A stretch of 64,000 nucleotides of DNA from Shimia sp. (lineage in GTDB: Bacteria > Pseudomonadota > Alphaproteobacteria > Rhodobacterales > Rhodobacteraceae), in assembly GCF_022448905.1 (NCBI RefSeq), contig NZ_JAKVCW010000006.1, positions 62,001 to 126,000 of the forward strand, written 5' to 3'. A program made the position numbers and the translations under genes. Below are positions 1,696 through 24,692 of this stretch, one piece after another; position 1 is the first letter of the stretch; each line of letters begins with the position of its first letter. Below the pieces are notes generated by a model. The model was not told the origin of the DNA. It was given only the letters and a program-made list of their open reading frames with translations, and did no database searches.

Positions 1696-2361
1696 TCACA
1701 CGCCGGTGCCGGCCATCACCACGGCCACGGTGCGCCAGACAACCGAGACATCGGTGCGCAGGCTCAGCGCGCGGTCATAGTGGCTGTCGTGAATGGCACG
1801 CTCGGCAAAGGAACACTCGTTGCGCTCGGAAATCTGCCAGAAACCGGTGATGCCTGGGCGCATGCGGTAATAAGCCGTGCCCGGGTACAGTGCGGTCTGT
1901 TGCGGCATCATCGGGCGCGGGCCAACCACGGACATGTCGCCCATCAGCACGTTCAGGAACTGTGGCAGCTCGTCCAGCGAGGTTTTGCGGATGATGCGGC
2001 CAATCGGTGTGATGCGCGGATCATGCGTCAGCTTTTGCTTTTCGTTCCACTCCAGACGGGCGGCTGGATTGGCGCGCAGATAGGCCTCCAGCTTACGGTC
2101 TGCATTGGGCACCATGGAGCGCAGCTTCAGCATGGAGAAGCGCTTGCCGTTTTTGCCAACACGTTCCTGACGGTAGAACGGAGACGCGCCATCCAGAGAG
2201 ATGAACAGGGCGAGCAGCAGTACAACCAGCGTGACGGGCACCGCAATGATCAGGACAAACAGGATGTCGAACGCCCGTTTGAACACGCTGCGGTAAACGC
2301 TGTAGCGCACCGGCGTGACCTCAAAGGCCTGTTCAAAATCTTCACGCGAAAAAATCGCCAT
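1696..2361 (-). CDS. ExoY-like undecaprenyl-phosphate sugar phosphotransferase
   Basis: A 221-aa bacterial sugar transferase of the ExoY/short WbaP type. It should transfer a sugar-1-phosphate from a UDP-sugar to undecaprenyl phosphate and so start repeat-unit synthesis on the cytoplasmic face of the inner membrane. One N-terminal membrane segment lies at about residues 30-55. The family core follows: KLRSMVPNAD, the DELPQFLNVLMGDMSVVGPRP signature in the middle, and RPGITGFWQ near residue 175. Length is typical of single-TM family members. It is followed by the polymerase gene and preceded by a 485-bp non-coding stretch that probably holds its promoter. Whether it transfers galactose, glucose or another sugar cannot be told. 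Confidence 0.9.
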   Translation of the reverse strand: MAIFSREDFEQAFEVTPVRYSVYRSVFKRAFDILFVLIIAVPVTLVVLLLALFISLDGASPFYRQERVGKNGKRFSMLKLRSMVPNADRKLEAYLRANPAARLEWNEKQKLTHDPRITPIGRIIRKTSLDELPQFLNVLMGDMSVVGPRPMMPQQTALYPGTAYYRMRPGITGFWQISERNECSFAERAIHDSHYDRALSLRTDVSVVWRTVAVVMAGTGV

Positions 2362-2846: not shown

Positions 2847-4118
2847 CTATTTGCCCAATTTCAGGATCATTGCCGCCAATCCTCCTGACACCGCCAGCAG
2901 GCCAAACACTTTCGTCAGACGTGTCAGCTTGCGCCGTCGCCGCTGGCGCGGAGTTTCCAGAACCGGAATGGCCGCCACGGCGCGCAGGCGCAATTGGCGC
3001 TCCAACTGGCCACGGGTCCAGATCACAGGGCTGCGCATCTCCAGCACAAACACCAGGCTTAAGGCGACCATGACAGACAGCACGCCACCCATCGCCAAAA
3101 TGCGTTTGCGCGAGGGCGCAATCGGCCAATCCGGCGGCAGCGCTTTTTCCAAAACGGTGAAACTGTCGGTTTGCTGGCTGGCCTCCAGCATCTGCTGCAT
3201 CTCCGCCTCGGCCTTGCCTGCGGTGATCGCCTGATACTGTTCTTCCAGCTTGGTCAGCTGCCGTTCCAGACGGTTGTATTGTTGTTCAATACGCGGCGTG
3301 TCTTTGAGCGCGGCCTCAATCTCGGCAATCTCGATTTGATAGAGTTCGCTCTCTTCCTGCAGCCGGCGCAGGCGCTGGGCACGCACGGAATTGCCACCGC
3401 TGGAAATACCCACGTTCTCCAGAAGTTGGCGCTGCACTTCCAATTCGATCTGCTGCAAATCCACCAGACGGGTGCGCAGGGCTTCCACGCCGCCGGGCAA
3501 TAGCACCGCGTTTTCCTGTTTATAATCGGCGATCTGCTGTTCCAGGTTGGTGATCGCCGCGCCAATGCGGCGCTCTTCGCCATCAAAGAAGGACAGGGTC
3601 TCGCTCACCTGTTCGGTGCGGCGCTTCTCTTCCTGCTCCAGCACATTGTTCACCAACTCGTTGGCCACATTGGCCGCCAGAACCGGATCGGTCATGCGCA
3701 CAGAGACCAACAGCGCGGAGGGGCTGATGTCCTGACGCCAGCGGAAGTCGGGGTTGGTGATGTGGATCACGCCGGCCGCTTTGCGCAGCAGCTCCACCTT
3801 TTGCAGCTCGCTCAAAGGGGCGTCATTGTAGAGGCCAAACTTGTCGATGATGGTCAGCAGGTTGTCCCGCGCCATTACCCGCTGCTCCACAATTTGCAGC
3901 TTTTGCAGTATGTCCGCGTTCAACGCACCGGGGGAGGTGGCGCCGGTTTTGATCGAGGGCTGCTCGATCTGGATGGTGGCATAGGTCTCATAATCGCGTG
4001 GCAGACCCAGCACGTAGGCCAGCGAGATCAACCCGCCGATGACAATGATGCTTGCCCACAGGAAGAACCTCCTGCGCAGCATGCTCAGCACCTCGCCAAA
4101 TGATTGGAACTTGTCCAT
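2847..4118 (-). CDS. Wzz/GumC-like chain-length determinant protein
   Basis: A 423-aa polysaccharide co-polymerase of the inner membrane that sets glycan chain length. It starts MDKFQSFGEVL, with a first membrane helix at about residues 17-37, a long periplasmic part containing heptad-like coiled coil (residues about 180-320, rich in E, Q, L and R), a second membrane helix at about 340-365 and a last hydrophobic stretch near the C-terminus. There is no Walker-type tyrosine kinase domain, so it is a stand-alone Wzz-type protein. The ATG at 4118 has GAGG six bases upstream and is preferred over an upstream TTG. It lies 73 bp downstream of the PPTase gene, so it may be the tail of the PKS-NRPS operon. 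Confidence 0.85.
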   Translation of the reverse strand: MDKFQSFGEVLSMLRRRFFLWASIIVIGGLISLAYVLGLPRDYETYATIQIEQPSIKTGATSPGALNADILQKLQIVEQRVMARDNLLTIIDKFGLYNDAPLSELQKVELLRKAAGVIHITNPDFRWRQDISPSALLVSVRMTDPVLAANVANELVNNVLEQEEKRRTEQVSETLSFFDGEERRIGAAITNLEQQIADYKQENAVLLPGGVEALRTRLVDLQQIELEVQRQLLENVGISSGGNSVRAQRLRRLQEESELYQIEIAEIEAALKDTPRIEQQYNRLERQLTKLEEQYQAITAGKAEAEMQQMLEASQQTDSFTVLEKALPPDWPIAPSRKRILAMGGVLSVMVALSLVFVLEMRSPVIWTRGQLERQLRLRAVAAIPVLETPRQRRRRKLTRLTKVFGLLAVSGGLAAMILKLGK

Positions 4119-4191
4119 GCCCGTCCTCAATATCGTCTTGGCGCGACTCGGATTCGCGCTCTTGAAGACAATTTATGACAAGCGAATGTGG

Positions 4192-4926
4192 TTATCCCGT
4201 GGCGCAAACCGGAAAATTTGCGTTCTCCATACCCGCCTGCGCGCCCAAAGTGACCATGGCCAACACATGTTCCCCGCCGGTGCCGCATTGCCCGGACAGC
4301 ACCGTGCCCTCGGGCACCTCGCCTACAGACTGCATAAAGCGCGCGGTAAACCCGGTGCTGCGCACGTTGAGCGTGACTTGAATGGTGTCAAAGCCAAACA
4401 GGGTCTGGGTCAGGGGATATTGCGCCTTATACACCGCCTCTTTGGCGCAAAACAGCCGCCGCGCCATCAACGCGCGACGCGGTGTCGGCACCTCCATCAA
4501 CCAGGCGCGTTCCTGCGGCAGGCAGATTTCTGCGGTCAGGTCATCATGTAGCGGCGCATCCGGTTCCACATCCACGCCGAGCGCGCGGAAGTGCCCTCCT
4601 GAGCCCACAATGGCGACACAGCTGGTGGCATCATGGGTGATCGAACCGGTCAGACCCTTGGGCCACTGCGGCGCACGGTCGGGGCGTGTCGGCACCGCTT
4701 GCTCCGGTCGTCCCAAAGACCGCATCGCCAGCCGCGCGGCTTGCCGTCCGGCGGCAAACTCGCGCCGCCGTTTGGGCACCGCGCGGGCAATGGCCGGGGC
4801 TTCTTGCGGCCAGACAACGGCCACGCCACGCGCAGGGTCGGTCACGGCCACGGCAACTTGTGGCGGGGCAATACGCTCCGCCAGAGATTTTAGGGCCACA
4901 AGGTGCTGGTTGGGTGACAGGCTCAT
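4192..4926 (-). CDS. 4'-phosphopantetheinyl transferase (EntD/Sfp superfamily)
   Basis: A 244-aa enzyme that moves the phosphopantetheine arm of CoA to the conserved Ser of carrier-protein domains, converting them to holo form. Family motifs are GSITHD (residues 94-99), GVDVEP with the Mg-binding Asp/Glu (117-122) and [12 protein letters not shown] with the catalytic W/F-x-x-K-E-x-x-x-K pattern (159-170). Its ATG overlaps the NRPS stop (ATGA, 4923-4926), so it is translationally coupled to its probable client. The neighbouring PKS ACP and NRPS PCP are the obvious substrates. Length is usual for the EntD-like group. Confidence 0.93.
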
Positions 4927-7900
4927 GTCCGCGCCCTCCGACGTGCGCGCATGGCGCGGCGCTTGCTCATGGTTTCCGCGCGGCTCTGCGCTTGGTCGCT
5001 GACCTCTTCGGCGGCCTTGGCTTCCGGCGCATCCGCTGGTTTGGGCGTGCCGGTCAACTCCTGCACCCGGCCTGCCAGCGCATTCAGCGTGGGGAAGCGG
5101 AACACATCGGTGATCGACAATTTCGCCGCGCCGGACCGTGCCCGTATTTCGCGGTGGGCCTGTACCGCCAGGAGGCTGTGCCCGCCAAGGTCAAAGAAGT
5201 TGTCGGTTGCCACCACTTCGCGCACGCCAAGCACCTCGGCCCAGACATCGGCCACCAGTTTGGCAATGTCACCACCGGCGGCAACGGGCGCTGCTGGTGC
5301 CGCCGTCTCCACTTTGGGCGTGGTGATCTTGCGGGTCTCTTCGGGCCGAGGCAGCGCCTTGCGATCAACTTTTTTGTTCGGTGTCAGTGGGAACTCTTTT
5401 AGCGTGACATAGTGCTGCGGCCGCATGAAACTTGGCAGGTTCTCGCGCAACTGCGCCCGAATGTCGGCCTCCACAGGCACATCACCTCGCAGATAGGCCA
5501 CCAGCCGCACGTCGCCCTCGGTATCTTCACGCGCCATGACCACCGCCTGCGCCACGCCGGGCACCTCTTCCAGCCGGGTTTCAATCTCACCCAGTTCAAT
5601 GCGATAGCCGCGCAGCTTCACCTGATGATCGACACGGCCAAGGAAGTCGAGCTTGCCATCCGCACGCCATCGCACAAGGTCACCGGTTCGATACAGTCGC
5701 CCATCCCCAAACGGATTGGCAATGAACCGCTCCGCCGTCAGCTCCTCCCGCCGCCAGTACCCACGGGTCACCCCCGCGCCACCAATCAGCAACTCACCCG
5801 CCACGCCCACCGGCACCGGAGCGCCCGCGTCGTCCACCACATAGACCTGCGTGTTGGCAATGGGATCACCGATGTTGGCCACGCCCTCGCTGGCACCCGC
5901 TATCGATGTGGTCGACCAGATTGTGGTCTCAGTCGGCCCATACATGTTCTGCACGCGGGCACCGCTGGCCGCATTCAGATCGGCCACCAGACTGCCAGAC
6001 AGCGCCTCGCCGCCCACCATCATCTGCTGCACACCCGAGAGCGCAAACCGCGCCTCTTCGTTGTCGGTCAAAAGCCGCGCCATCGACGGGGTGCACTGCA
6101 GGTGGCTGACCTCATGGCGGATCATCTGCGCCGCAATTGAGATATCCTCGGGGTCCAGCTCGCCGCCCTCATTGGCGCGTTTCAGCACCTCGGCCAATGG
6201 CTTCAGCCCTTCCAAAACGGTCGCGCTATCGATGCCGTAATCGATCAGACAGGCAATCTCGGTCACACCAATGCGCTTGACCTGTTCCACCCGATCCAAG
6301 GCATCCTCAACCGTGCCAAACAACCCGCTGTCCTCAAAATACCGCAGGAAGGCAAAGTCGAGGATTTCTTCGAGTTCGTCTTCGCTCAGAATGCCGAGGT
6401 CCAGCTCAAAGGCGTTGTTCACCCCTTCGGGTTTCTTGAACGCGGGAAACGCCCAGGCATAGCTTTTGATCAAGCCCGCCGCCGCGCGCAGGTAGTCTTT
6501 CATCGGCTCACGCGCGATCTCGCGCGCTTTTTCCCGGTCTTCGGCCAGGAAGCTGTGCAGCATCAACGTAACGCTAAAGTCATCCGGGTTGTGCCCCGCC
6601 TCGCGCAGCGCATCATGATACAGCGCGATCTTTGCGCCCACTTCTTCCACGCTTTGCCCCAACAGGTGCGTCAGCACGTTACAGCCATTCCGCCCCGCAT
6701 CTTTCCAGGTCTCCGGGTTGCCGGCCGTGGTCACCCACAATGGCAACTCTTTGGACACCGGGCGCGGCTGCGTCATCACCGGATGCATCGAGCCGTCTTT
6801 TTTCGGGAATTCCACCTCTTCGCCGCGCCAAAGTTTGCGCAGGTCGTCCATCTGCTCAAACATCACATCGCGGTTGCGCGGCGGGGTGTTTTCGGGCCGC
6901 AACACAAAATCATCCGGCTGCCAGCCGCTGGCAATCGCCAGGCCTGCGCGGCCATTGGTGAGGTTGTCGATCACCGCCCATTCTTCTGCGATGCGCGCGG
7001 TGTGGTGCAGCGGCGACACGCAGGATCCAGCGCGCACGCCGATCTGTTTGGTCACAGCCGCCACCGCCGCGCCGGTCACCGACGGGTTGGGGTAGGGGCC
7101 GCCAAAGGCGTGGAAATGCCGCTCCGGCGTCCAGACCGCGCAGAACCCATGGGCATCGGCAAACTTCGCGCCTTCCAGCAGCAATTCGTATTTCTTTGAG
7201 CCCTGACCATCGTCGTTGCCCCAATAATAGATCGAGAAATCCATTCCGCCAGCCGTGGCTGGCAAACGGCCACCAGAAATCTGCGTGGTGGTTTCATCGC
7301 CTGACAGCACCAGCTTAAAGCCGCGCGACAGGGTCCAGAACAGTTCCAGAACCGAAATGTCAAACGACAGCGACGTGACCGCCATCCAAGTATCACCGGC
7401 CTGATGGGGCACCCGCGCGTCCATCCCGGCAAAGAAGTTGGCCACGTTTCCATGCTCGACCATCACGCCTTTGGGCGTGCCAGTGGAGCCAGATGTGTAG
7501 ATCAAATAGGCGAGGTCGCCGCCGGAGACGATGGCCTCTGGATTGTCCGCCGAGGCCGTCGAGAGCCGCGCGTCGCTGTCCATCTCCAGCACTTGTGCGC
7601 TGTGGTCTGGCAAGTCGCGTGTCAGCGCCGCTTGCGTCACAATTACGGCTGCGCCACTGTCGCTGATGTAATGGGCCAAACGGTCAGCGGGGTAGGCCGG
7701 GTCCATCGGCACATAGGCCCCTCCGGCTTTCAAGATCGCCAGCGCGGCCACCACCAGATCGGGCGACCGGCGCAAACAAAGACCAACCAGCGCGCCGCGG
7801 GTCACGCCCATGTCACGCAACACATGCGCGGCGCGGTTGGCCCGCGCGTTCAGATCGGCGTAGCTGAGCACTTCATGCTCAAACACCAACGCGGGGGCGT

Positions 7901-9584
7901 CCGGTGTCTTGGCAACCTGCGCCTCAAACTGCGCCGCCATGGTGAAATCCGGGTCAAACGGCGCATCGGTGGCGTTCCAGCCCGTCAACACCTCGGCGCG
8001 CTCTGCCTCTGGCAGCACATTTAGATCCGCCACATTGGCCGCGGTGCCAATCTGTGTGCAGATCAGCTCCAACCGCGCAACCAAACGCGCGGCGTGTTCT
8101 GGGGATACCCGCGCCGCATCAAAATGCAGCACAGCACCCGCTGCGCCAATGGCCACGGTCATCGCCGCGCCGTCGATTGGACCAGCCAAGCCGCCAGTCG
8201 TCACCGCCAAGTCCGGCATGGTCGGTGCAGACAGCGCCGGATCGCGGGCGATCAGGTCGCTGGCAAAGCTGCCTTTGGCATCTGCCTGCGCCACACGCTC
8301 GGCCATCGCGGTATTGGCCTCGGCCACTGTGTCATGCAGCAGCTCGGCTCCCACACGCAGCGGTACCCATGGCGAAATCAGCCCGGCGGCTTGCGGATGC
8401 TCCGCGCCGCGATAGGCCACATCACAGACCTCCGGAAGGCCTGACCGCAGCGCCCAAATGGCGACCGCGGTCAGGATACTCTTGGAGGGAGTCTCGGAAA
8501 TCTCAAGCGGCAACTGCCGCATATCGGCCAGATCACCTGCGCCACGGATCAGCGGCAGGGTGGCTGGCACAAATTCACCCAAACGCGCGCGCCAGAACGG
8601 CTCGGCTTTGGCAATGGGGGTCATGGTGGCGGACAGCGCCTCACTCGCGGCTTTGTCCAAAAGCGGCAGGCGTTCACCGGCACGGATCACATGGCTGGCG
8701 GTCTCTTCTTGACCTGCCCCATCGCTCAAACCGCTCAACACCACGGCTCCCCGTCCACAGGCCACGGTCACATTGTCTTCTCCAACGGCTAGAACCGCGC
8801 CCGGCTCTCCCCGGCCCGCGCTTTCGGCGACTTCGGCAGATGTCACCAGCAGCACGCGTCCGGCGGCGACCATCTTGGGCGCAAACAGCGGGTTGAAGTA
8901 ATCGCCATGATCCAGCGCGCGCACGAGTGCCACCACATCCTGTGCATCGCGGCGGAAATCAATCCGACCTGCAGCCTCTGGCCGTTTGGCACGGCCAAAA
9001 TAGCTGCGTTGGCTCATGTCCTGCGCCCGCGTGTTGGCGAGGTCTTCGCCCAAGGCGCGCATCACGTCCGGGAAGCTTTCAATGGCGGCGGCGTAACATT
9101 TGGTATTCAGTGTCAGCGCGGTGTCCGCCTGCCCAATGTCAAACATGCGCTGGGCAACAATCTCGCCGGTGTCCGCGCCCACTTCCATCTTGTGCCATGT
9201 GATGCCGTGGCGCGGCTCCTGAGCCAGGCGCGCCCAGACCGGTGCATTCAAGCCCGCATAACGGGGTAGTGGCCCATCGTGGAAGTTCACCGCACCTTTG
9301 GCGGGCAGCTTCAGCACGGTGTCTGACAGCATGTCCAAGTTGGCGACACTCAACAGCCAGTCAAACCGCTCCCCCAGCAGTTCACCCGCAATATCGCTGT
9401 CCGATGATATCACCCGCAGCCCGGCCTCGGTTGCCCAGTCGCGGATCTCTGGCGCGCGCGTGACCACAGCGGCCAGCGTGTTGCCAGTGTCGAGCCACAA
9501 CGTGGCACATTGGATCAGCAGACTCTCGTTGCCAATCATTACGGCAGACATCGGCGCGGCGTTGGTGAAACTATCAAGGCTCAT
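4923..9584 (-). CDS. Formyltransferase-NRPS with inserted luciferase-like monooxygenase (FT - half C - A[LLM]A - PCP)
   Basis: A 1553-aa multidomain enzyme. Residues about 10-290 form a formyl-transferase domain with [12 protein letters not shown] (N100, H102) and GADTGEIV (D138). Residues about 325-550 match only the C-terminal half of a condensation domain (FWRAR, then [10 protein letters not shown]); no HHxxxDG is present. An adenylation domain follows ([23 protein letters not shown]), interrupted at about 775-1140 by a flavin-dependent luciferase-like monooxygenase of the MupA/Atu3671 type, then resumes ([33 protein letters not shown]). The PCP has LGGHSLLA with Ser1470, and the protein ends in an Arg-rich tail. 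The ATG at 9584 sits in an ATGA overlap with the upstream glycosyltransferase and follows AAGGAGG. It probably loads, N-hydroxylates and/or formylates one amino acid. The substrate cannot be predicted. Confidence 0.9.
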
Positions 9585-10591
9585 GAGGAGGCCTCCTTGC
9601 GAACAGACAAAGTGGGGATTTTGGACGGTTCGCGCTGCGTCCGAGTGAAGAGAGATTTCAGGTAGTGGCTGATCAGATCCCGCAGAAAATGATCCGGGTC
9701 CCGCTTGGGTTTGCCGCCAATCACACGGCGCAGTTTCCACAGGCAGGCACCTGTGACATGCGCCAAAGTGGCGGCAAAGGCGTACGCCCCACCGTGGTTT
9801 TTGCGGAAGTAATGCAGGCGGCTGTCAAACCAGTACTGCGGCATGCGCTGCCAGGTTTTCATGCCGGTAGACACGGACCCGATATGGGTCACAGAGCTGG
9901 GGCGCACATAATCCGTATGCCACCCCGCGCGCTGGGCACGCAGGCAGAGGTCGGTTTCCTCAAAATAGAGAAAGAAGGTCTCGTCAAAGAGGCCAATCTG
10001 TTCCAACACCTCACGCCGCATCAACATGGACGCCCCCGCCAGCCAATCCACCCGTGTGGTTTCCGCCGGGATCGGCAAGGGCACGATGTGTGTGTGCAAA
10101 GCACGGCTGATCAGCCCGACCCGCGCCGCGCCTTCCAGTTCACTTCCAATGGTATGGAAGCGAAAGGCGGTCAGGTGCGGTTCGTTATCTTCGCCGTGAA
10201 TATAGCTGCCCGCGAAGCCGCAGGTGGGCATCTGCGCCATATGATCCAGCAACGCGGTGATGCTGCCCGCGTCGGGAAAGGCGTCGGAGTTTAGGATGTA
10301 GACAAAGTCAAAATCGCGCTGCACCAAGCCATGGCGGATGCCAAAGTTGTTGCCCGCGCCAAAGCCACCATTGCGACCCGACTGCACCACTTCCACGCGG
10401 CCCGCAGCCCAATCGGCCTCAGCAATGCCCGCCGTCATAGCCTCAAACGAGCCATCGCCGCTGTCATTGTCGACAATCACAATCTGCCCGTCGATGCCCG
10501 CCATCTCGCGCGCCGCCGCCTCGGCCGCTTTCAGCGTCATCTCCGGCGTGCGCCAGTTCAGGATCACGGTCAAAAGGGATGAGTCACTCAT
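9581..10591 (-). CDS. GT2 family glycosyltransferase (rhamnosyltransferase-like)
   Basis: A 336-aa cytoplasmic GT-A glycosyltransferase. The N-terminus has the GT2 fold start ([18 protein letters not shown]), [10 protein letters not shown] for nucleotide binding, [11 protein letters not shown], and the metal-binding acidic stretch YILNSDAFP at about residues 95-103. Mid-protein there is [22 protein letters not shown] and [19 protein letters not shown], which are typical of WcaA/RfbF-like rhamnosyltransferases. It overlaps the PKS upstream and the NRPS downstream by ATGA (10588-10591 and 9581-9584). A sugar transferase therefore lies inside the PKS-NRPS operon, implying that glycan and polyketide/peptide synthesis are linked. 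Donor and acceptor are unknown. Confidence 0.9.
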
Positions 10592-13500
10592 TCTGCCGCC
10601 CTCCGCGCCGCGCGTTTGGGCAGGTCTTTCTCCGCCGCCGCAATCACCTTTTTCATGCGGGTTGCCAGTACCCGCACGTTGGGTTCCAGCACCATGCTGT
10701 CATGATCGCCCGGCACCTCAAACACCTGCACATCGGGCACCCATTGGCTCCAGTCATTGTCTTGGAACACATAGGCGCGGTCGGCGTCCACCAAACGCCC
10801 GTCGCCCATGTCCCATTTGCCCACCAGCGGCGGACGGAACAGCACCAAATTGCCCTGCCAAGCGTGCATCGGGTATTGCGCCACAGCCCGCAGGAAAGCC
10901 GCCTCGATATCGGCATCATGGAACTGCTGCCCCTGCGCCTCGGCTTCGGTTTCCTCTGTCGGGCGACGCTTCTCGATCTCCCAGGCAATGCGGTTTTTGG
11001 CCCAGATCAACGGATAGGCCGCGCCTTTGGATTTGAGCTCTTGCATCTGGATGCGCATCCGGTCCTGGCGCGACAGCGGGCGACGCACAGGTAAGGGCGT
11101 ATCAAGCATCGCCACCAGCGCAACCTCGTCGCCGTGCGCCTCTAGCTGTCGAGCAATCTCATACGCGGTGATGCCGCCCCCGGAGAAACCACCCAACAGG
11201 TAAGGCCCTTCAGGCTGCACCTGTTTCATCTCCGCAATGTAATCCGTGGCCGCCTCGACAAGGTCATCATGCGGCGCGGCATCGCCAAACAGGCCGCGCG
11301 CTTGCAGGCCATAGAATGGCCGATCCGCACCGATCAGATGCGCCAGATGGCGCAGGTTCAACACGTTGCCAAACATGCCCGCCACCAGGAAGAACGGCGT
11401 GCGGTGCCCGCCTTCACCCTGATGCATCGGCACCAGATGGGTGAATCGGCTTTGCGGACGCGCCTCTGACTCCGCAGGACTATCCCCAGTCGCAACCTCC
11501 CCCAGCGCCGTGTCACCTACCCGCTCCGCAATCATCGCGGCGCAGGTTTCAATGGTGGGTGCCTCAAACAGCACCGAAATCGGGAACTCAATCGCCCAGG
11601 CCTTTTTGACCATGGCAAACAGGCGCACTGCGATCAGGCTGTGCCCGCCGAGATCAAAGAAACTGTCGCGGATGCCAACCAGCTCCACGCCCAGCAAATC
11701 CTGCCAGAAGCCCGCCAACGTGCGCTGAATATCGGTTTCCGGCGCGACATAATCGGTTTCCAACTCTGGCCGCTCAAAGCTCTGGCTTGGCCCATTGTCC
11801 TCATCCGCGCCCGCCTCGGCCTGTGCAATCAAGGCTGCCAGATCCAGCGAGGAGATCACCACCTGCGACCGGTCCCCGCGCAGCGCGGCTTCAAACAGAT
11901 CGGCCCCCATGTCCGGCGGAATGCCTTGAGACAGATTGTGCGCCAGTCGCTCTTCGGCGGTGGACAGCGGCGCTTGCGCCTGCGCGTCTTCGTCAAAGGT
12001 GACTTCTGCCTTGCTCAACGGTTGCGCCTTGGCAAAGCCCGCGGCGGTTTCCACCTGCCGCAACGACAGGCCTTTGACCTCAATGCTCACTGCGCCATTG
12101 GCATCGGACAGCACCACGTCAAACCGGGCGGAGCCAGCATCGCTGCTGCCCTCGACCAAGGTCACATGGCTCATCACCTCGGCGGGCAATGCGCCATGGC
12201 GAACCAGCCGGTCATAGCCCACGGGCACCCACAAATGCTCCTGCGCATAGCCGGGGATCAGGTCCATGGCCCAGCCAGTGGCGATGTCCAGCAGGCCAGG
12301 GTGCAGCTGCAAGCCGTCGCCGTCAAACTGCGCGTCCAAACTCAGCCGCGCGAGGCCCTGTTGCGCCCCAAGCGCGGTTTCGCGCAGCACTTTCCAACGC
12401 GGCCCAAAGCGCATGTGCGCTTCTTGTGGGGCGCTCAATGCCGCGCCAAAGCCGTTCTGCTGCACCGGGCAGTCCGCCTTGAGCGCGTCCAGATCCAACG
12501 CCGCCGGCGCACCGGATCGCACCGGTGCCAGCCGTGCCTCGGCGTGGGTTTGCCAGCCGGGACGGCCGTCAAAGCTCACCGCTGTTTGCACCTCAAACCG
12601 ATAGCCTTCATCCGAGCGGATCAGGCGCAGGCGCATCTCCGTGCCGCTGTCGCTCACGCGCATCGGGCGCAGGAACAGCAGGTCATGTATCGCGAAGGGT
12701 GCGCTCTCGCCCTGCGCCTTCAGCGCCTCATAGGCCAAGGAAATGTATCCGGTGCCGGGCATAACCGCGTCGCCATCCAGCGTGCGGTGCTCGTCCAAAA
12801 TCCAATCTTTGGCAGACAGGCTTGCGGTGAAAATCCGGTTGCCCTGTGCGTCAAATCCCGCGCCTTGCAGCAGCGGATTGTCGATCGCCTCAGTCGGCAC
12901 ATCGACAACATGGCCCTGCCGTGCCGCAACCGCCTCGGCGGCCATGCCAACCTCGGCCCAAAGACCCCAGTTGATCGCCCGCACGCGGGTTTTGTCGGTT
13001 TGACGCGATTGCGCGTAGGCGTTCAGATAGGCGTTGGCGGCGACATAATCGATCTGCCCTGCCGGTGCGGTGGCCGTGGAAGACGACGCAAACAGCAACA
13101 GCCAATCCAGACTGCCATCCGGGAATAGTTGCTCGAGCACCTGCGTACCGTGCAGCTTGGGCGCCAACACATCGTCGATGCCCGCCGAGGTTTTGGCCAG
13201 CAGTGGCCCGTCGTCGATCACACCGGCGGCGTGGATCACGCCGTTGATGTCGCCAAAGGCCTCGCGCGCGGCATCTATAGCCTCCGCCATTTCATCCACG
13301 TTGCACACGTCTGCCGCCAGCGGCAGCACCTTGCCGCCCAGGCTTTCCAGCCGCTCCACCGCGCGGATGCGTTGGGCCACGCGATCATGCGGCGCGTGCC
13401 CTCGCAGGTAATCGCCCCACTTCTCGCGCGCCGGCAAGCCTTCGCGGGCCAAAAGCACCACGTTGGCGCCGGCGCTTTGGATCATGCGCTCCGCCAGCGT

Positions 13501-16500
13501 CAGGCCAATGCCGCCAAAGCCACCGGTGATCAGATAGGTGCCGCCGTCTTTGAAAACCGGCATCTCCGCGCCGTCCATCGCCACCTTGCGATAGCCGCGC
13601 TCAAACCGTTTCTCCCCCCGCCAGGCCGCGATCTGCCCCCGGGGGGCGGCCAGAATGTCTTCGAGCAGTTTGCCCACCAACCCACCGCGCGCTTTCTTCG
13701 CGGGTGGCTCCACATCCAGCAGGGCGCAAGTCACGCCGGGCAACTCCCGCCCAATCACCTGCACCGCGCCCAGCACCGTGGATTTCTCCGGATAGGGCAG
13801 CGCCTCTTTGCGCACCTGCACTGCGCCAGAACTCACCGTGGTGATGTGCAAAGGCGTGGGGAGATTCTCGTCGCTCACCGCTTGCGCAAGGAAGAACAGG
13901 CTCATCAGCCCCTGTTCCTGATTGCGGTGGAAAAAGCTCGACCCCGGACGGTGGCTTTCATTCTCGGTCAGCAGCCACAAATGCACAACGCGATCCGGCA
14001 CGCGGCCTTTGCTCATCAAGCTGTGAATCAGCGCGTCATACCCATCGCGCCCGCGTTCCGGCGCCAGTGCGTAGCTGTCCGGGCCGGTCTCGGCAAAGGC
14101 GTCGCCAGTGGTCACGGTCACCACATCCTGACCCGCGTCGCGCAGGCGGCTGGCCAGCGCCGTGCCAGTGCCGCCTTGGTCAATAAAGATCAACCAGCTG
14201 TGCTTTTCCGCGTCGCTCAGCTCGGTCTCGATATCAATCTCACATTCCGCCAACCGTGGAGTCCACACCGGCGCATAGCTCCAATCCGCTGTGTCCTCGA
14301 GCCGCATCAACAACTCGTCTTGCGCCTCAATCTGACCCTGACCCGGCTCAATGAAATAGCGGCTGCGTTGGAAGGCATAAGTCGGCAGCACCACCTTTTG
14401 GCGCGGGACGTCCCCCCAATATTGGTCAAAGTCCACATCGACCCCGCAGGCCCAAAGCTGGCCCAAGACGGTGAGGAAATAGGCATCATCGCCAATGTCA
14501 TCTTCTGGGTGGCGCAGGGAGGACAGAACTTTGTCGGCCTTCACCTGTCCGTGCATTTTTACCAGCGACGACAGTGCCTTGCCCGGGCCGACCTCCAGAA
14601 ACACCCGCCCGCTTTCCTGCGCGAGGGTGGTGATGCCGTCGGCAAAGAACACGGTGTTGCGCAGGTGCCCAACCCAATACTCGGGATCGGTCGCTTCGCT
14701 GTCGAGCAACGTGGCGCCCGTGCGGTTGGAAATGATCGGCAGGCGCGGCGCGTGAAGCTGAATTGTGCGCAGGTAATCCCCGAACCGTCCCAGTATCGGC
14801 TCCAACATACGCGAATGTGCGGCGATGTTGATCGGCACGCGCTGCGTTTCAGTCTCCTGATCCGCCAGCTTGGCCGCCAAAGCATCCAGCGCCTCATCCG
14901 GCCCGGACACCACGGTCAGCGCAGGCGCATTCACCGAGGCAATATCAATCTCGTCGCTCAGGTGGGTTTCCACTTCGGCCAATGGCAGCGGAATCGACAA
15001 CATCCCGCCCGCCGGTACCGTGTCAAACAGCTGCCCGCGCAGCTGCACCAGCCCCAGACAATCCTCAAACGACATCACACCGGCCAAACAGGCCGCTGTG
15101 TTTTCGCCCATGGAGTGGCCCACCAGCGCGGCAGGTTTTACGCCCCAACTCATCCAAAGCTGCGCCAGCGCATATTCCACCATCATGATCAGCGGCAGTT
15201 GCAGGCTGGGTTGTTTCAGACGCTCCTCAGCCTCGGCAACAGCCTCCCCTTCGGCCAGCCACAGCGCGCGCAATTCCTCGCCGCCTTTGCCCGCCAAATG
15301 GGCAAATCCGCGCTCCATCCACTCTTCAAAGACCGGTTCGGTCTCAAACAGATCGCGCCCCATGCCCACATACTGCGCCCCGCCACCGGGGAACATGAAG
15401 ACCACTTCCGGCGATTCCGCCTCAGCCGTGTGCGTGAACACCCGCCGCAGATTGCCGCTCTCCAGATAGTCCGCCGCCTGTTCATGGCTCTCCGCCACAA
15501 CCACACGTCGTTTCTCAAACGCCCGCCGTCCGTTCAGCAACGTATGTGCCACATCGGCCAGCGGCTGTTCCGGATTGGCCTGCAGATGCGCCGCGAGGTT
15601 GGCCGCATTGGCGTCCAGCGCCTTGGTCGAGCGGCCCGACACCGCAATCAGTTGAAACGGCCAGTCGCTCTCTTGGCTCTCGGCCCGCACTGGCGCTTCC
15701 TCGACCACCACATGCGCATTGGTGCCGCCCACGCCAAGGCTGTTCACCCCAGCCCGTCGTGGCCCTTTGTGGCTCTCCCACGCCCGCAAGCTGGCGTTCA
15801 CCGCAAACGGGCTGCTCTCAAAATCAATCGCCGGATTGGGCTTCTCAAATCCTAGGCTTGGCGGCATCTCTTTGTGGTGCAGCGCCAAAGACGTCTTGAT
15901 CAAGCTCGCCGCCCCAGCTGCCGTGTCCAAATGGCCAATGTTGGTTTTCACCGAGCCAATGCGACAAAACCCGGTCTCCTCGGTGGTTTCGCGAAACGCC
16001 TCGGTCAGGGCCGCCACCTCAATTGGATCGCCCAAATATGTCCCGGTCCCGTGGCACTCGATGTAATCCACCGTGTCCGCGGGCACATCCGCAATCGCCA
16101 AAGCATCGGCGACCGCCGCCGCCTGTCCGCCCACGGATGGTGCCAGATAGCCCGCTTTCTCAGAGCCATCATTGTTGACCGCAGAGCCTTTGATGACGGC
16201 CCAGATGTGATCGCCCTCGGCAATCGCATCCTCCAGCCGCCGCAACACAACCACACCTGCGCCGGAGCCAAACACGGTCCCCTGAGCGCGATGGTCAAAG
16301 GCGTGGCACTCGCCGTCCGGGGACAGGATTTCGCCATCCTCAAACACATAGCCGCGCCCATGGGGCAACTCGAGGGTCACCCCCCCAGCCAGCGCCATGT
16401 CGCATTCGCCGTTCAGGATCGACTGCGCGGCATAATGCACCGCCACCAGCGACGTCGAGCAGGCGGTCTGCAATCCAAGGCTTGGCCCATTCAAATCCAG

Positions 16501-17022
16501 AATGTGGCTCAGCCGCGTGGTCATGAAATCCTTGTCGTTGCCCGTATGGCGCAACAAGAACATGCCGGTGCTGTCCACCAGATCGCGGTTGGAGCAGATG
16601 TTGAAATAGAAATAGCTGCCCATTCCGCAGCCGCCAAACACCCCAATAGGACCGCCGAAGTTCTCCGGCATATGGCCCGCGTTTTCGAGTGCCTCCCAGC
16701 TCACCTCTAGAAACTGGCGGTGCTGCGGGTCCATGATCGCGGCCTCTTTTGGCGACAGCCCAAAAAACTCCGCGTCAAAATCGGCAAAGCCGTCCACTGT
16801 GGCGGCGGCGGGCACATAGTTGCGATGCGCCATCTTGGCCCGGCTCTCGCCATTGGCCAGAAGCTCGTCTTCACTCAGCTTGCGGATGGAACGGATGCCG
16901 TTGCGCAGGTTGTGCCAATACTGATCAATCCCGCCCGCGCCGGGCAGGTGGGCCGCCATGCCCACAATTGCAATATCCGTCTCTGCGACCGGTTGGTCCG
17001 TCGGGCTTGTCACCACATCCAC
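10588..17022 (-). CDS. Type I polyketide synthase, KS-AT-KR-DH-ACP-TE
   Basis: A 2144-aa single-module PKS. The ketosynthase (about 13-440) has Cys188 (TACSTS), His324 (ECHGTGT) and His364 (NIGH). The acyltransferase (about 540-830) has GHSMGE with Ser637 and AAHSRM near 734-739. A structural Rossmann half (about 915-1100) precedes the catalytic KR (TYLITGGFGGIG at about 1163, with Ser/Tyr in FASSSTATAP and QIDYVAANAY). A DH-like double hotdog (about 1400-1655) has His1412 and Asp1579. The ACP carries Ser1795 (LGGHSL). The thioesterase (about 1875-2130) has GFSGGG Ser1947, Asp1974 and His2107. Start is GTG at 17022. KR before DH is not the usual cis-AT order. Product probably a short reduced or unsaturated acyl group released by the TE; chain length unknown. 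Confidence 0.93.
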   Translation of the reverse strand: MDVVTSPTDQPVAETDIAIVGMAAHLPGAGGIDQYWHNLRNGIRSIRKLSEDELLANGESRAKMAHRNYVPAAATVDGFADFDAEFFGLSPKEAAIMDPQHRQFLEVSWEALENAGHMPENFGGPIGVFGGCGMGSYFYFNICSNRDLVDSTGMFLLRHTGNDKDFMTTRLSHILDLNGPSLGLQTACSTSLVAVHYAAQSILNGECDMALAGGVTLELPHGRGYVFEDGEILSPDGECHAFDHRAQGTVFGSGAGVVVLRRLEDAIAEGDHIWAVIKGSAVNNDGSEKAGYLAPSVGGQAAAVADALAIADVPADTVDYIECHGTGTYLGDPIEVAALTEAFRETTEETGFCRIGSVKTNIGHLDTAAGAASLIKTSLALHHKEMPPSLGFEKPNPAIDFESSPFAVNASLRAWESHKGPRRAGVNSLGVGGTNAHVVVEEAPVRAESQESDWPFQLIAVSGRSTKALDANAANLAAHLQANPEQPLADVAHTLLNGRRAFEKRRVVVAESHEQAADYLESGNLRRVFTHTAEAESPEVVFMFPGGGAQYVGMGRDLFETEPVFEEWMERGFAHLAGKGGEELRALWLAEGEAVAEAEERLKQPSLQLPLIMMVEYALAQLWMSWGVKPAALVGHSMGENTAACLAGVMSFEDCLGLVQLRGQLFDTVPAGGMLSIPLPLAEVETHLSDEIDIASVNAPALTVVSGPDEALDALAAKLADQETETQRVPINIAAHSRMLEPILGRFGDYLRTIQLHAPRLPIISNRTGATLLDSEATDPEYWVGHLRNTVFFADGITTLAQESGRVFLEVGPGKALSSLVKMHGQVKADKVLSSLRHPEDDIGDDAYFLTVLGQLWACGVDVDFDQYWGDVPRQKVVLPTYAFQRSRYFIEPGQGQIEAQDELLMRLEDTADWSYAPVWTPRLAECEIDIETELSDAEKHSWLIFIDQGGTGTALASRLRDAGQDVVTVTTGDAFAETGPDSYALAPERGRDGYDALIHSLMSKGRVPDRVVHLWLLTENESHRPGSSFFHRNQEQGLMSLFFLAQAVSDENLPTPLHITTVSSGAVQVRKEALPYPEKSTVLGAVQVIGRELPGVTCALLDVEPPAKKARGGLVGKLLEDILAAPRGQIAAWRGEKRFERGYRKVAMDGAEMPVFKDGGTYLITGGFGGIGLTLAERMIQSAGANVVLLAREGLPAREKWGDYLRGHAPHDRVAQRIRAVERLESLGGKVLPLAADVCNVDEMAEAIDAAREAFGDINGVIHAAGVIDDGPLLAKTSAGIDDVLAPKLHGTQVLEQLFPDGSLDWLLLFASSSTATAPAGQIDYVAANAYLNAYAQSRQTDKTRVRAINWGLWAEVGMAAEAVAARQGHVVDVPTEAIDNPLLQGAGFDAQGNRIFTASLSAKDWILDEHRTLDGDAVMPGTGYISLAYEALKAQGESAPFAIHDLLFLRPMRVSDSGTEMRLRLIRSDEGYRFEVQTAVSFDGRPGWQTHAEARLAPVRSGAPAALDLDALKADCPVQQNGFGAALSAPQEAHMRFGPRWKVLRETALGAQQGLARLSLDAQFDGDGLQLHPGLLDIATGWAMDLIPGYAQEHLWVPVGYDRLVRHGALPAEVMSHVTLVEGSSDAGSARFDVVLSDANGAVSIEVKGLSLRQVETAAGFAKAQPLSKAEVTFDEDAQAQAPLSTAEERLAHNLSQGIPPDMGADLFEAALRGDRSQVVISSLDLAALIAQAEAGADEDNGPSQSFERPELETDYVAPETDIQRTLAGFWQDLLGVELVGIRDSFFDLGGHSLIAVRLFAMVKKAWAIEFPISVLFEAPTIETCAAMIAERVGDTALGEVATGDSPAESEARPQSRFTHLVPMHQGEGGHRTPFFLVAGMFGNVLNLRHLAHLIGADRPFYGLQARGLFGDAAPHDDLVEAATDYIAEMKQVQPEGPYLLGGFSGGGITAYEIARQLEAHGDEVALVAMLDTPLPVRRPLSRQDRMRIQMQELKSKGAAYPLIWAKNRIAWEIEKRRPTEETEAEAQGQQFHDADIEAAFLRAVAQYPMHAWQGNLVLFRPPLVGKWDMGDGRLVDADRAYVFQDNDWSQWVPDVQVFEVPGDHDSMVLEPNVRVLATRMKKVIAAAEKDLPKRAARRAAE

Positions 17023-17120: not shown

Positions 17121-18488
17121 TCAGGGCAAATTGAGGGCAGAAAGCTTAACAATCGCGCTCTGATATAGCCAAAAGGCAAGGCCGCCTATGCCAATGCCCA
17201 CGGTCCAAAACACCGCATCATGGCGCGCATCCCAGGCATCATGTGCCCGCGCCAGACAGACCACCGCCGGATAGGCCAGCACCATCGCCAATCCCTGTCC
17301 CAGCAAGGCACCGGTGAGGCCATACTGGCTTGCTCCGATCATCAGGCCCACCATCATGAGCGCCGCCCGTGTCGCGGCCAACAGGAAGAAACCACGGCTG
17401 TCCCCGGCGGCCAAAGCGGCCTGGTCGTAGGTCAGGGCAATCACCTGCGGGATTTGCATCACCGCCAAAAGCACCACCACCCCCCCGGCCAGCGCATAGC
17501 GCGGATCATAGAGCGCGGCGACCAGCCAGACGCCGATCAAGGCAAACAGCGTCAAAAGTCCCATCAACCCGCCGCTCAAGAGCATGCGCATCTTGTGCAA
17601 TTTGGCGCGGTTCTCGGCGCTCTCGCTTGGGGGCTTTTCGCGGTAGATCGGGATCATGATCCGCCGCATCAACATCCCGCCCAGCAACAGCGGGAAGGAT
17701 GCCAGGAAGTAGCCGATGTTGTAGACCCCTAGCGCGCCAAGGCTGAGGTGTTTGCCCAGCACAATTTTGTCACCTTGAGACAGCAGAAAACCGGCGGCGG
17801 TGGAGAGGAAAATCCACTTGCCAAAGTGGATTAGTTCTCCGGCGGCGGGCTTGTCCCAGCGCGGCTTATTGATCGCGCCGGGCAGGAAAATATAGTAGAA
17901 AATCAACTGCATGACCGTGGTGGTCACCGCATTGGCCACCAAGGCCCAGACCGATCCCGTGGCCCAGGCAATGGCCACGCCGACCACCAGTCCTATCACT
18001 TGCGCTGACAGGTCGATCATCGTGATCCGCCCCAGCGCAAGGTGCCGGTTGGCGCTGTCTTTTTTGGTGGGGAACAACCCCATGATCAACAGGGTCAGGC
18101 CGACCACCGGTAGAATCTCGGCCAGCTCCGGCGCGTCATAAAACGCCGCCGCTGGCACAGCCAAGGCCCAGGTCAGGATCAGCAGGAACACGCCGCGCAA
18201 CACCTGGATGGTCCAGGCGGTGTCGAGGAAGGCGCGATCCTCGCCGCGTTTGCTTTGCAGGATCGACTGGGTCACGCCCATGTCCGACAGGTTGGACAGC
18301 CCCTGCAAGAAGACCCAAACAAGGCTCATCAGGCCAAAAGCTTCTGGAAAGAGCAGGCGAGTGAGGATCAGGTTGGAGGCCAGTCGCAGCGCTTGAGACC
18401 CGCCATACCCAAGGATGGTCCAGCCGCCACTGCGAATGGCGCGTGCGGCAAGCGAATTGCCCTGCGTGAGGCTTTTGAGGCGGCTCAT
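17121..18488 (-). CDS. Wzx-like polysaccharide flippase (MOP superfamily)
   Basis: A 455-aa polytopic inner-membrane protein with about 12-14 helices. It begins with the family-like stretch SLAARAIRSGGWTILGYGGSQ, has LILTRLLFPEAFGLMSL early on, and ends with a hydrophobic pair. This is the Wzx/PST group of the multidrug/oligosaccharidyl-lipid/polysaccharide exporter superfamily, which moves undecaprenyl-linked repeat units across the inner membrane. Its ATG overlaps the stop of the upstream GT2 gene (18485-18488), and it lies 98 bp ahead of the PKS. It completes an inner-membrane Wzx/Wzy/Wzz set. No outer-membrane Wza-type gene is present in the window. Confidence 0.88.
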   Translation of the reverse strand: MSRLKSLTQGNSLAARAIRSGGWTILGYGGSQALRLASNLILTRLLFPEAFGLMSLVWVFLQGLSNLSDMGVTQSILQSKRGEDRAFLDTAWTIQVLRGVFLLILTWALAVPAAAFYDAPELAEILPVVGLTLLIMGLFPTKKDSANRHLALGRITMIDLSAQVIGLVVGVAIAWATGSVWALVANAVTTTVMQLIFYYIFLPGAINKPRWDKPAAGELIHFGKWIFLSTAAGFLLSQGDKIVLGKHLSLGALGVYNIGYFLASFPLLLGGMLMRRIMIPIYREKPPSESAENRAKLHKMRMLLSGGLMGLLTLFALIGVWLVAALYDPRYALAGGVVVLLAVMQIPQVIALTYDQAALAAGDSRGFFLLAATRAALMMVGLMIGASQYGLTGALLGQGLAMVLAYPAVVCLARAHDAWDARHDAVFWTVGIGIGGLAFWLYQSAIVKLSALNLP

Positions 18489-19309
18489 CTTCCGCGCTCC
18501 CAGGCACTGGATTTCTGGGGCGAAAACTTCACCACAATCGAGACCGCCGCATAAACTGCAAAGCCCAACGTATCGCGCACCATCATGGTTAGTTTTGTGC
18601 CTAAACTGAGGGTGAATTTATCGTCGTTTTGCAGCAGGTCCGGGAACCGTGCCTTAATTTCGTCTACACCTGCGTTTTGGCGTCGCCGAACTTTGACCAA
18701 GGCGGCGAATCCCTCAACCAGCGGCCAGTCATAACCCGCTTCGGTGCCGATCCGTTCTTCTGGCGTGAAGTTCAGCCGCACAAAGGTGTCGTCCGAAATG
18801 ATACCGGGAAACTCATCCCAGCGCGCGCGACCGGCGGCGTTCACCGCAAACAAGCCAGCCCCCGGCACGCCGTGAGTGATGAAAGGCACTTTGCTGTAGG
18901 TGCGTGCATAGGCCCGCGTAGCCCATGTCTTGGCGCGCGGCAGTCGCAACTTGCCGCTGGCATATCGTGGCGCATCTGTGTTCAGCGCTTCGGCAATTTG
19001 TCCCATCAGAGCTGGGTCGACCCGAACATCGGCATCCAGATAGGCGCGGGTGCCAAAATTGGCAGCGTCATCGGCGGCATTGAGCGCGCCCATTTTGCCC
19101 AAAGCGGGCAGGTCCAGAACCGTGAGGCTCCAGCCTTTGTCTTTAGCTTGTGTACGGAAGCCCTCGGCAATCTGCACCGTGTCGTCCTCACAGCCATTGG
19201 CCGCCACCACAATCTGCGCCACCGCTGGCCCGTCAGAGGCCAAAACGGCTTCCAAACAAGGGCCGATATGGGCGGCCTCATTGTTGGCCGGAATGAGAAT
19301 GCTCAACAC
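18485..19309 (-). CDS. GT2 family glycosyltransferase with C-terminal membrane segment
   Basis: A 274-aa GT-A glycosyltransferase beginning MLSILIPANNEAAHIGPCL, the classic GT2 start. It has VVAANGCEDDTVQIA for the nucleotide site, LGKMGALN, and the metal-binding acidic motif AYLDADVRV near residue 93. A hydrophobic segment close to the C-terminus (about residues 243-262) suggests membrane attachment. The 3' end overlaps the flippase start by ATGA. It probably adds a sugar to the lipid-linked repeat unit. Linkage and donor are unknown. Confidence 0.87.
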   Translation of the reverse strand: MLSILIPANNEAAHIGPCLEAVLASDGPAVAQIVVAANGCEDDTVQIAEGFRTQAKDKGWSLTVLDLPALGKMGALNAADDAANFGTRAYLDADVRVDPALMGQIAEALNTDAPRYASGKLRLPRAKTWATRAYARTYSKVPFITHGVPGAGLFAVNAAGRARWDEFPGIISDDTFVRLNFTPEERIGTEAGYDWPLVEGFAALVKVRRRQNAGVDEIKARFPDLLQNDDKFTLSLGTKLTMMVRDTLGFAVYAAVSIVVKFSPQKSSAWERGR

Positions 19310-22375: not shown

Positions 22376-22560
22376 GCGCCGCGTCCTCCTGGCCTGTTGT
22401 TGGGTCCAATATGGGCGATTTAGGGGGCTGTTCAAAGGGGATTGCTCGGGAATAGGGACCTAGGGTTAGGGTTGAACGAACTACGTAGTCTTACCACCTT
22501 GCCCGTGGCCCCACCCAAAAGGCACTGTTGGTGTCAGATCAGGCAGTTTGGGAGGCATCC

Positions 22561-24691: not shown

Positions 24692-24692
24692 A

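What the first reader, a model, noticed from the sequence alone, without database searches (positions are those of the whole stretch)
4192..17022. PKS, glycosyltransferase, NRPS and PPTase as one translationally coupled unit inside a Wzx/Wzy polysaccharide locus
Seen: three consecutive ATGA overlaps (10588-10591, 9581-9584, 4923-4926) join a single-module PKS with its own TE, a GT2 glycosyltransferase, a one-module formyltransferase-NRPS and a PPTase. Wzx, GT2 and a secreted esterase/glycosidase lie on one side; Wzz, ExoY-like transferase and Wzy lie on the other, all on the same strand. Known: Wzx/Wzy systems build glycans on undecaprenyl; PKS/NRPS lines make acyl or peptidyl groups. Inference: the product may be an exported glycan with a polyketide- or amino-acid-derived substituent, or an acylated, formylated sugar.
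Basis: partly seen in the sequence, partly recalled or inferred. Interest (0 to 1): 0.82.

Follow-up and report, generated by a model that had tools for sequence, protein, structure and literature searches.

The report
Antibiotic-type assembly line in polysaccharide locus
Many marine bacteria of the Roseobacter group carry a small antibiotic-like assembly line of unknown purpose; here it is found to travel with genes for a surface polysaccharide, so it probably makes a chemical decoration for that coating, perhaps for the glue that cells use to attach.

Summary
In detail: PKS, GT2, NRPS and PPTase joined by three ATGA overlaps, between wzx/GT2/secreted enzyme and wzz/sugar-transferase/wzy, all on the minus strand. 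The four-gene block is a known orphan roseobacter cluster. What is new here is its bond to a polysaccharide pathway. In 295 family genomes, NRPS and wzx co-occur (100 both, 7 wzx only, 9 NRPS only, 179 neither); so do a WecG gene just past the window (99/7/10/179) and an SGNH hydrolase (55 of 55 carriers have the NRPS). The seven plasmid records read, two of them Hyphomicrobiales, place the block among polysaccharide genes. Against: Methylobacterium and one other genome carry the bare NRPS-PKS pair without such genes nearby. Best reading: the NRPS loads N-formylated, oxidised glycine, the PKS adds one malonyl unit, and the product decorates a Wzx/Wzy-type surface glycan, perhaps an adhesin. 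The chemistry is inferred.

The parts
10588..17022 (-). Single-module type I PKS, KS-AT-KR-DH-ACP-TE (KR before DH)
   Evidence: Pfam domains; KS, AT, KR, DH, ACP and TE active-site residues 61/61, with G (60/61) four residues after the DH Asp
9581..10591 (-). GT2-family glycosyltransferase, ATGA-coupled to PKS and NRPS
   Evidence: Pfam; junctions; homologue in 76 of 80 named loci
4923..9584 (-). NRPS loading-type module: formyltransferase - partial condensation domain - A domain with inserted monooxygenase - PCP, Arg-rich tail
   Evidence: Pfam and NCBIfam; start taken at ATG 9584 rather than the mechanical GTG at 9740
8664..9560 (-). Formyltransferase domain (residues 9-307), ArnA/Fmt-type fold
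7965..8657 (-). C-terminal lobe of a condensation domain; the HHxxxDG lobe is absent
6189..7244 (-). MupA/Atu3671-family FMN-dependent luciferase-like monooxygenase inserted between A-domain motifs a4 and a5
   Evidence: TIGR04020 E 6e-143; matches PuwE 6ket over residues 781-1132; WTPERHF 67/67
5349..7937 (-). Adenylation domain (two parts around the monooxygenase), predicted glycine-specific
   Evidence: Pocket positions D-I-L-Q-(M/L/F)-G-M-I-W-K, nearly invariant except the fifth; part after the insertion scores higher with the second A domain of LgrA (215 bits) than with the first (172); glycine code and LgrA substrate recalled
5067..5258 (-). Peptidyl carrier domain
   Evidence: Pfam PP-binding; S1470 67/67
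4192..4926 (-). 4'-phosphopantetheinyl transferase
   Evidence: Pfam 4PPT_N and ACPS; ATGA overlap
2847..4130 (-). Wzz-type chain length determinant
   Evidence: Pfam Wzz 1.4e-7; TIGR03007 below its cutoff
1696..2361 (-). Undecaprenyl-phosphate sugar-phosphate transferase (initiating enzyme)
   Evidence: Pfam Bac_transf 6e-58
50..1633 (-). Multi-membrane-span protein, probable Wzy polymerase
   Evidence: Wzy_C E 0.0053; homologue in 42 of 80 named loci
17121..18488 (-). Wzx flippase
   Evidence: Pfam Polysacc_synt_3 2e-47; co-occurs with NRPS
18485..19309 (-). GT2-family glycosyltransferase, ATGA-coupled to wzx
   Evidence: Pfam, junction
19403..22435 (-). Probably secreted protein: SGNH-like N terminus, conserved central domain with glycosidase-like motifs, weak RTX repeat
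   Evidence: Conservation map of the window protein and 22 homologues; SGNH motif alignment; HemolysinCabind E 0.007

Best explanation
A Wzx/Wzy-dependent surface polysaccharide locus with a built-in two-protein acyl assembly line. Proposed steps: the PPTase arms both carrier domains; the NRPS A domain loads (predicted) glycine, the fused formyltransferase N-formylates it, and the embedded monooxygenase oxidises the alpha carbon; the unit passes to the PKS, which adds one malonyl unit, reduces and probably dehydrates it; the TE releases it, directly or via an acyltransferase, onto a sugar of an undecaprenyl-linked repeat that Wzx flips and Wzy polymerises. SGNH hydrolases of the locus then move or trim the acyl group. 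The WecG gene suggests that the glycan is of the holdfast/rosette adhesin kind. Shown: gene order, domain make-up, intact catalytic residues, co-occurrence. Inferred: substrate, every chemical step, attachment to the glycan, adhesin role.
For: Co-occurrence in 295 family genomes, given as both/gene only/NRPS only/neither: wzx 100/7/9/179 (93/0/16/186 at 410 bits or more), WecG 99/7/10/179, SGNH hydrolase 55/0/54/186. Recounted with the best place of each gene: wzx and NRPS on one contig in 78 of 100 genomes, 73 within 25 kb; WecG and NRPS on one contig in 84 of 99, 81 within 25 kb; SGNH and NRPS on one contig in 40 of 55, 31 within 2 kb. 70 of 80 named loci hold a wzx, wzy, wzz or sugar-transferase homologue in the flanks held. 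Seven plasmid records with gene tables (of 15 that cover 80% of the NRPS) all show the block among polysaccharide genes: Ruegeria (2), Parasedimentitalea, Paracoccus (2), Aminobacter, Shinella. The NRPS gene lies directly upstream of the PKS gene, same strand, 22 and 54 nt apart, in L102 and L195, which fits loading then extension. Monooxygenase insertion between a4 and a5 of a glycine A domain is as described for myxothiazol/melithiazol (PMC10204066, passages). Catalytic residues conserved. The P. inhibens wecG restores holdfast to a Caulobacter hfsJ mutant (PMC11340318, section 11), and P. inhibens carries PKS and NRPS genes that its genome paper links to Martens et al. (PMC4062626, passages).
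Against: The NRPS-PKS pair exists without recognised polysaccharide genes in Methylobacterium bullatum (L102), G574 (L194) and G632 (L195). G144/L098 has a distant version in what looks like a multi-module NRPS/PKS line. L066 and L166 show no polysaccharide gene in the stretch seen. 54 of 109 NRPS genomes, the window's own among them, lack the SGNH hydrolase that was searched. No enzyme that would transfer an acyl group from carrier to sugar was identified. Glycine specificity rests on a recalled code; the F domain folds most like ArnA and Fmt, so an amino sugar could be its substrate. In PMC11340318 the P. inhibens initiating enzyme has a plasmid locus tag (PGA1_262p00380) while the PKS/NRPS tags in PMC4062626 are chromosomal, and the tag of its wecG was not in the passages seen, so adhesin and PKS/NRPS genes may be separate there. 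In G034 and G055 the only listed wzx lies more than 1 Mb away and may be a paralogue.
Confidence: 0.55

Rival explanations
1. The block makes a separate small secreted metabolite (signal, antibiotic or metallophore), perhaps glycosylated by the coupled GT2, and merely shares a locus or regulation with the surface polysaccharide.
For: NRPS-PKS pairs without polysaccharide neighbours in Methylobacterium and G632; TE release; the block has its own PPTase; in 65 of 69 loci wzx and PKS are not within -40..+60 nt of each other (98 nt gap here). Earlier authors list it among secondary metabolite clusters (PMC4337385, PMC5014874, passages).
Against: Co-occurrence with wzx, WecG and SGNH in the family, including SGNH genes 160-580 kb away from the NRPS in three genomes; no small-molecule exporter or resistance gene among the block's neighbours that were scanned in the window.
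Confidence: 0.22
2. The PKS makes a lipid anchor or primer for the polysaccharide, in the manner suggested for RkpA/WcbR of capsule loci (recalled), with the PKS working iteratively.
For: Type I PKS genes wcbR/rkpA lie in clusters for capsule biosynthesis and export (PMC3908369, passages); KR-before-DH order without ER would fit an iterative maker of unsaturated chains (inference).
Against: No loading domain other than the NRPS; a formyl-glycine starter and a TE do not suit a membrane lipid. RkpA itself was not compared here.
Confidence: 0.12
3. The formyltransferase acts on an amino sugar rather than on glycine, and the line builds an N-acyl group for that sugar.
For: The F domain superposes best on ArnA, which formylates UDP-Ara4N, and on sugar N-formyltransferases; a DegT-type aminotransferase gene lies in the Ruegeria locus.
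Against: F is fused to A-PCP in all 67 aligned proteins, as in the gramicidin initiation module; no aminotransferase was seen in the window's block.
Confidence: 0.08

Closest known systems
Orphan roseobacter PKS/GT/NRPS/PPTase cluster (Martens et al.; PMC4337385, PMC5014874)
   Same: Same four gene types; found in 28 of 57 roseobacter genomes in PMC4337385; product unknown (passages). The window's block is most likely a member.
   Different: The passages seen do not mention polysaccharide genes, the embedded monooxygenase or the truncated condensation domain.
RkpA/WcbR type I PKS in rhizobial and Burkholderia capsule clusters (PMC3908369)
   Same: A type I PKS encoded among polysaccharide biosynthesis and export genes (passages).
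   Different: No NRPS partner appears in the passages seen; RkpA sequence was not compared here.
MtaG/MelG glycine modules with monooxygenase between a4 and a5 (myxothiazol, melithiazol; PMC10204066)
   Same: Glycine A domain split by a flavin monooxygenase domain at the same place.
   Different: There a condensation step comes first (recalled) and the outcome is a C-terminal amide; here a formyltransferase replaces the catalytic half of C and a PKS follows.
Gramicidin LgrA F-A-PCP initiation module
   Same: Formyltransferase fused to A-PCP.
   Different: F matches LgrA weakly in sequence (15.5 bits); as recalled, LgrA has neither the monooxygenase nor a condensation remnant before its first A domain.
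Holdfast-like polar adhesin pathways of Alphaproteobacteria (PMC11340318)
   Same: Initiating sugar transferase, WecG/HfsJ-type GT, Wzx, Wzz and an OafA-type acyltransferase in the locus.
   Different: No PKS or NRPS is mentioned for these pathways in the section and passages read.

Membership tests
Roseobacter PKS/GT/NRPS/PPTase cluster | Four genes PKS, GT, NRPS, PPTase together | tested here: met
   described so in PMC4337385 and PMC5014874
Roseobacter PKS/GT/NRPS/PPTase cluster | Sequence identity to the originally described genes | not tested
   Those sequences were not fetched; Leisingera sp. JC1, one of the strains described, has the block on contig L134
Wzx/Wzy-dependent polysaccharide locus | Flippase, initiating transferase, chain length regulator, glycosyltransferases | tested here: met
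Wzx/Wzy-dependent polysaccharide locus | Wzy polymerase | tested here: inconclusive
   Only a weak Wzy_C match
Wzx/Wzy-dependent polysaccharide locus | A glycan is made | not testable with these tools
   Needs chemistry
Myxothiazol-type glycine/monooxygenase module | Flavin monooxygenase inserted between a4 and a5 of the A domain | tested here: met
Myxothiazol-type glycine/monooxygenase module | Glycine activation | tested here: inconclusive
   Pocket residues fit a recalled glycine code; no assay
Myxothiazol-type glycine/monooxygenase module | Complete upstream condensation domain | tested here: not met
   Only the C-terminal lobe remains; requirement itself recalled
F-A-PCP initiation module | Formyltransferase with catalytic Asn/His/Asp fused to A-PCP | tested here: met
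RkpA/WcbR PKS | Orthology to RkpA/WcbR | not tested
   No RkpA sequence was fetched
Holdfast/unipolar adhesin pathway | WecG-family glycosyltransferase in the locus | tested here: met
   Pfam Glyco_tran_WecG 3e-44 at G000:C31:56054-56845; HfsJ-type activity of this protein not tested
Holdfast/unipolar adhesin pathway | Polar adhesive polysaccharide, rosettes | not testable with these tools
   Reported for P. inhibens (PMC4641667, abstract), not for this organism

The most novel reading that the evidence does not exclude
The line makes a masked-aldehyde acyl group: N-formylglycine is hydroxylated at its alpha carbon to a carbinolamide, or cleaved to a glyoxylyl unit, extended once to a 4-oxo or 4-formamido-4-hydroxy butenoyl group, and mounted on the polar adhesin polysaccharide, where the hidden aldehyde forms covalent cross-links that make the glue set; SGNH hydrolases tune the number of groups.
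Probability: 0.1. Interest if true: 0.88.

Novelty: new variant of a known kind. Interest (0 to 1): 0.68.

Why it matters
A widespread orphan PKS/NRPS cluster of roseobacters has been listed as a secondary metabolite cluster of unknown product. If it decorates a surface polysaccharide, the search for its product should move from culture extracts to the cell surface, and assembly-line chemistry would become part of how abundant marine bacteria attach to algae and surfaces. It would also be an unusual case of a hybrid NRPS-PKS supplying a glycan substituent, with an unusual module (formyltransferase in place of half a condensation domain, ahead of an oxygenase-split glycine domain).

Tried and rejected
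Rejected: chance clustering (co-occurrence). Rejected: ORF 22576-23787 as a gene of the locus; no Pfam or NCBIfam match, looks spurious. Rejected: the neighbouring znu/zur genes as part of the system; of 153 loci compared, znuB and zur matched only L195. Nothing usable: promoter scan (4 found, 4.7 expected). The paper search for the glycine code found none. LgrA is not among the 50 rows listed for the F-domain model, which excludes nothing.

Limits of the counts. Dropped before counting: one NRPS row below 1400 aa and three PKS rows below 1900 aa. The contig distances left out some genomes by oversight; one search repeats them with all 109 NRPS genomes and replaces them. Only the best place per gene and genome was used, and different contigs are partly broken assemblies. 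The SGNH profile found a match in 69 of 151 loci, many of them cut short. Part of the profile match (last 30 of 84 positions) covers the start of the A domain; searches test the lobe itself.

Literature: searches; in the rows listed (titles and abstract starts) I saw none that ties this cluster to a polysaccharide, but lists were cut at 6-20 rows and most subscription papers are not held. Martens et al. 2007 and Michael et al. 2016 were not read.
Full report
What is in the window. On the minus strand, in order of transcription: a protein with SGNH-like and glycosidase-like parts (19403-22435), GT2 (18485-19309), Wzx (17121-18488), PKS (10588-17022), GT2 (9581-10591), NRPS (4923-9584), PPTase (4192-4926), Wzz (2847-4130), initiating sugar transferase (1696-2361) and a probable Wzy (50-1633). 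The ATGA overlaps are exact, and wzx/GT2 overlap likewise. The PKS is a single module in the order KS-AT-KR-DH-ACP-TE. The NRPS carries a formyltransferase, an A domain split by a MupA/Atu3671-type monooxygenase (TIGR04020, E 6e-143) and a PCP; no TE was matched in it. The closest named relatives are a Rhodobacteraceae MAG and an uncultured Shimia (96% and 95% identity in the best NRPS segment, L108 and L109).

The block and the polysaccharide genes travel together. NRPS homologues, fragments included, occur in 109 of 295 family genomes. PKS matches are found in 108 of these 109; the 15 genomes with PKS but no NRPS match have only 37-46% identical, partial matches. In 78 of the 100 genomes both lie on one contig, 73 within 25 kb; in G034 and G055 they are more than 1 Mb apart, so that wzx may be a paralogue there. 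Past the window start the locus continues with an AT3-SGNH acyltransferase, GMC oxidoreductase, SDR, epimerase and oxidoreductase genes, two glycosyltransferases and a WecG-family gene. WecG matches are bimodal (about 238 bits or more, or 94 or less): both 99, WecG only 7, NRPS only 10, neither 179; 84 of 99 on one contig with the NRPS, 81 within 25 kb. An SGNH hydrolase that follows the PPTase in other genera, with Ser 66/66, Asp 61/66 and His 64/66 in the rows aligned, is found in 55 genomes, all 55 with the NRPS: 40 on one contig with it, 31 within 2 kb, three at 160-580 kb. The window's own genome has no match to that query; its weak SGNH relative is the N terminus of 19403-22435 (23% identity, E 0.003). 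Pairwise distances of NRPS and wzx correlate (r 0.60; NRPS-PKS 0.89) over 66 loci, which also reflects shared ancestry.

Named loci. Of the 80 best contigs in the GTDB collection, 76 keep a PKS, 76 the GT2, 71 the PPTase, and 70 a wzx, wzy, wzz or sugar-transferase homologue in the flanks held. Of the ten others, seven show other glycosyltransferase or export-type genes (one of them, L141, only a weak Wzz match), two only SGNH or UbiA-type genes, and one (L166) none. I read seven plasmid records with gene tables, of 15 that cover at least 80% of the NRPS: Ruegeria sp. SCSIO 43209, R. conchae, Parasedimentitalea marina, Paracoccus liaowanqingii and P. marcusii, and the Hyphomicrobiales Aminobacter sp. 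MSH1 and Shinella zoogloeoides. All seven have the block among flippases, sugar transferases or glycosyltransferases; in Aminobacter and Shinella the PKS is on the opposite strand and the coupled GT2 is missing. Two further records, Rhizobium sp. BG6 (L101) and M. bullatum (L102), had no gene table; L101 shows Wzx, WecB and GT2 homologues, L102 only weak ones. In Ruegeria sp. SCSIO 43209 the plasmid also carries a dTDP-rhamnose operon and a PPTase beside WecG. R. denitrificans plasmid pTB2 has the WecG and no PKS or NRPS among the 28 features seen in 40.7 of its 69 kb.

Results against. In a sample of 385 genomes of the class only 7 carry the NRPS, and two of these are outside the family. Those two (G574, G632) and M. 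bullatum have the NRPS-PKS pair beside a LuxR-type regulator and unknown proteins, or beside transport, GST and TPP-enzyme genes; apart from an epimerase gene near G574's pair no polysaccharide gene was recognised among the ORFs scanned. So the pair can exist, and presumably work, without the glycan genes; recruitment to polysaccharide loci would then be a lineage-specific event. Which enzyme would transfer the acyl group to a sugar is not settled: the TE, the AT3-SGNH acyltransferase and the SGNH hydrolase are candidates.

What is known. PMC4337385 reports the four-gene cluster in 28 of 57 roseobacter genomes with an uncharacterised product, and PMC5014874 repeats this for Leisingera sp. JC1; both cite Martens et al. 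(passages). P. inhibens carries PKS and NRPS genes that its genome paper links to Martens et al. (PMC4062626, passages). PKS genes in capsule loci have a precedent in RkpA/WcbR (PMC3908369, passages). PMC11340318 (section 11 read whole, other passages) shows that WecG-family enzymes of several Alphaproteobacteria, P. inhibens among them, restore holdfast in a Caulobacter hfsJ mutant; P. inhibens forms rosettes held by a polar polysaccharide (PMC4641667, abstract). Whether that wecG is the orthologue of the one found here is not stated in what I read, and the initiating enzyme tested there has a plasmid tag while the PKS/NRPS tags are chromosomal.

Verdict. The finding turns an orphan natural-product cluster into a directly testable question about a surface glycan. 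The recount and the new structure result did not change my odds.

Noticed in passing
window 23891-25930 and L195 3908-5933: A zur-znuC-znuB zinc uptake operon lies next to the locus in the window and also close to the NRPS-PKS pair of genome G632 (L195); among 153 compared loci znuB and zur matched only there.
   Followed up: partly
window 4923-5000 (NRPS C terminus): The NRPS ends in a short Arg-rich tail (consensus M.RRR.MRARR) conserved across the family; it could be a docking or membrane-binding segment.
   Followed up: no
L196 and L197 (G144): A distant NRPS relative lies in what looks like a multi-module NRPS/PKS assembly line, a possible outgroup with an ordinary natural-product role.
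   Followed up: no
L181 and L121: The block also appears on contigs labelled Myxococcales MAG and Hydrogenophaga pseudoflava; mislabelled or contaminated assemblies are as likely as gene transfer.
   Followed up: no
L188 (Streptomyces sp. NBC_01343 plasmid): A gene annotated as MupA/Atu3671-type monooxygenase, matching residues 516-1504 of the NRPS, is followed by a flavin reductase gene, a likely FMNH2 supplier; none was recognised in the window's locus.
   Followed up: no
L103, L190, L192 and L198: GMC oxidoreductase and SDR genes recur side by side in these polysaccharide loci; their role in the glycan is unknown.
   Followed up: no
G073, G213, G031 and others: The SGNH hydrolase gene is often followed at once by a second SGNH match in a large open frame of about 830-1000 aa, like the window's 19403-22435 product.
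   Followed up: partly
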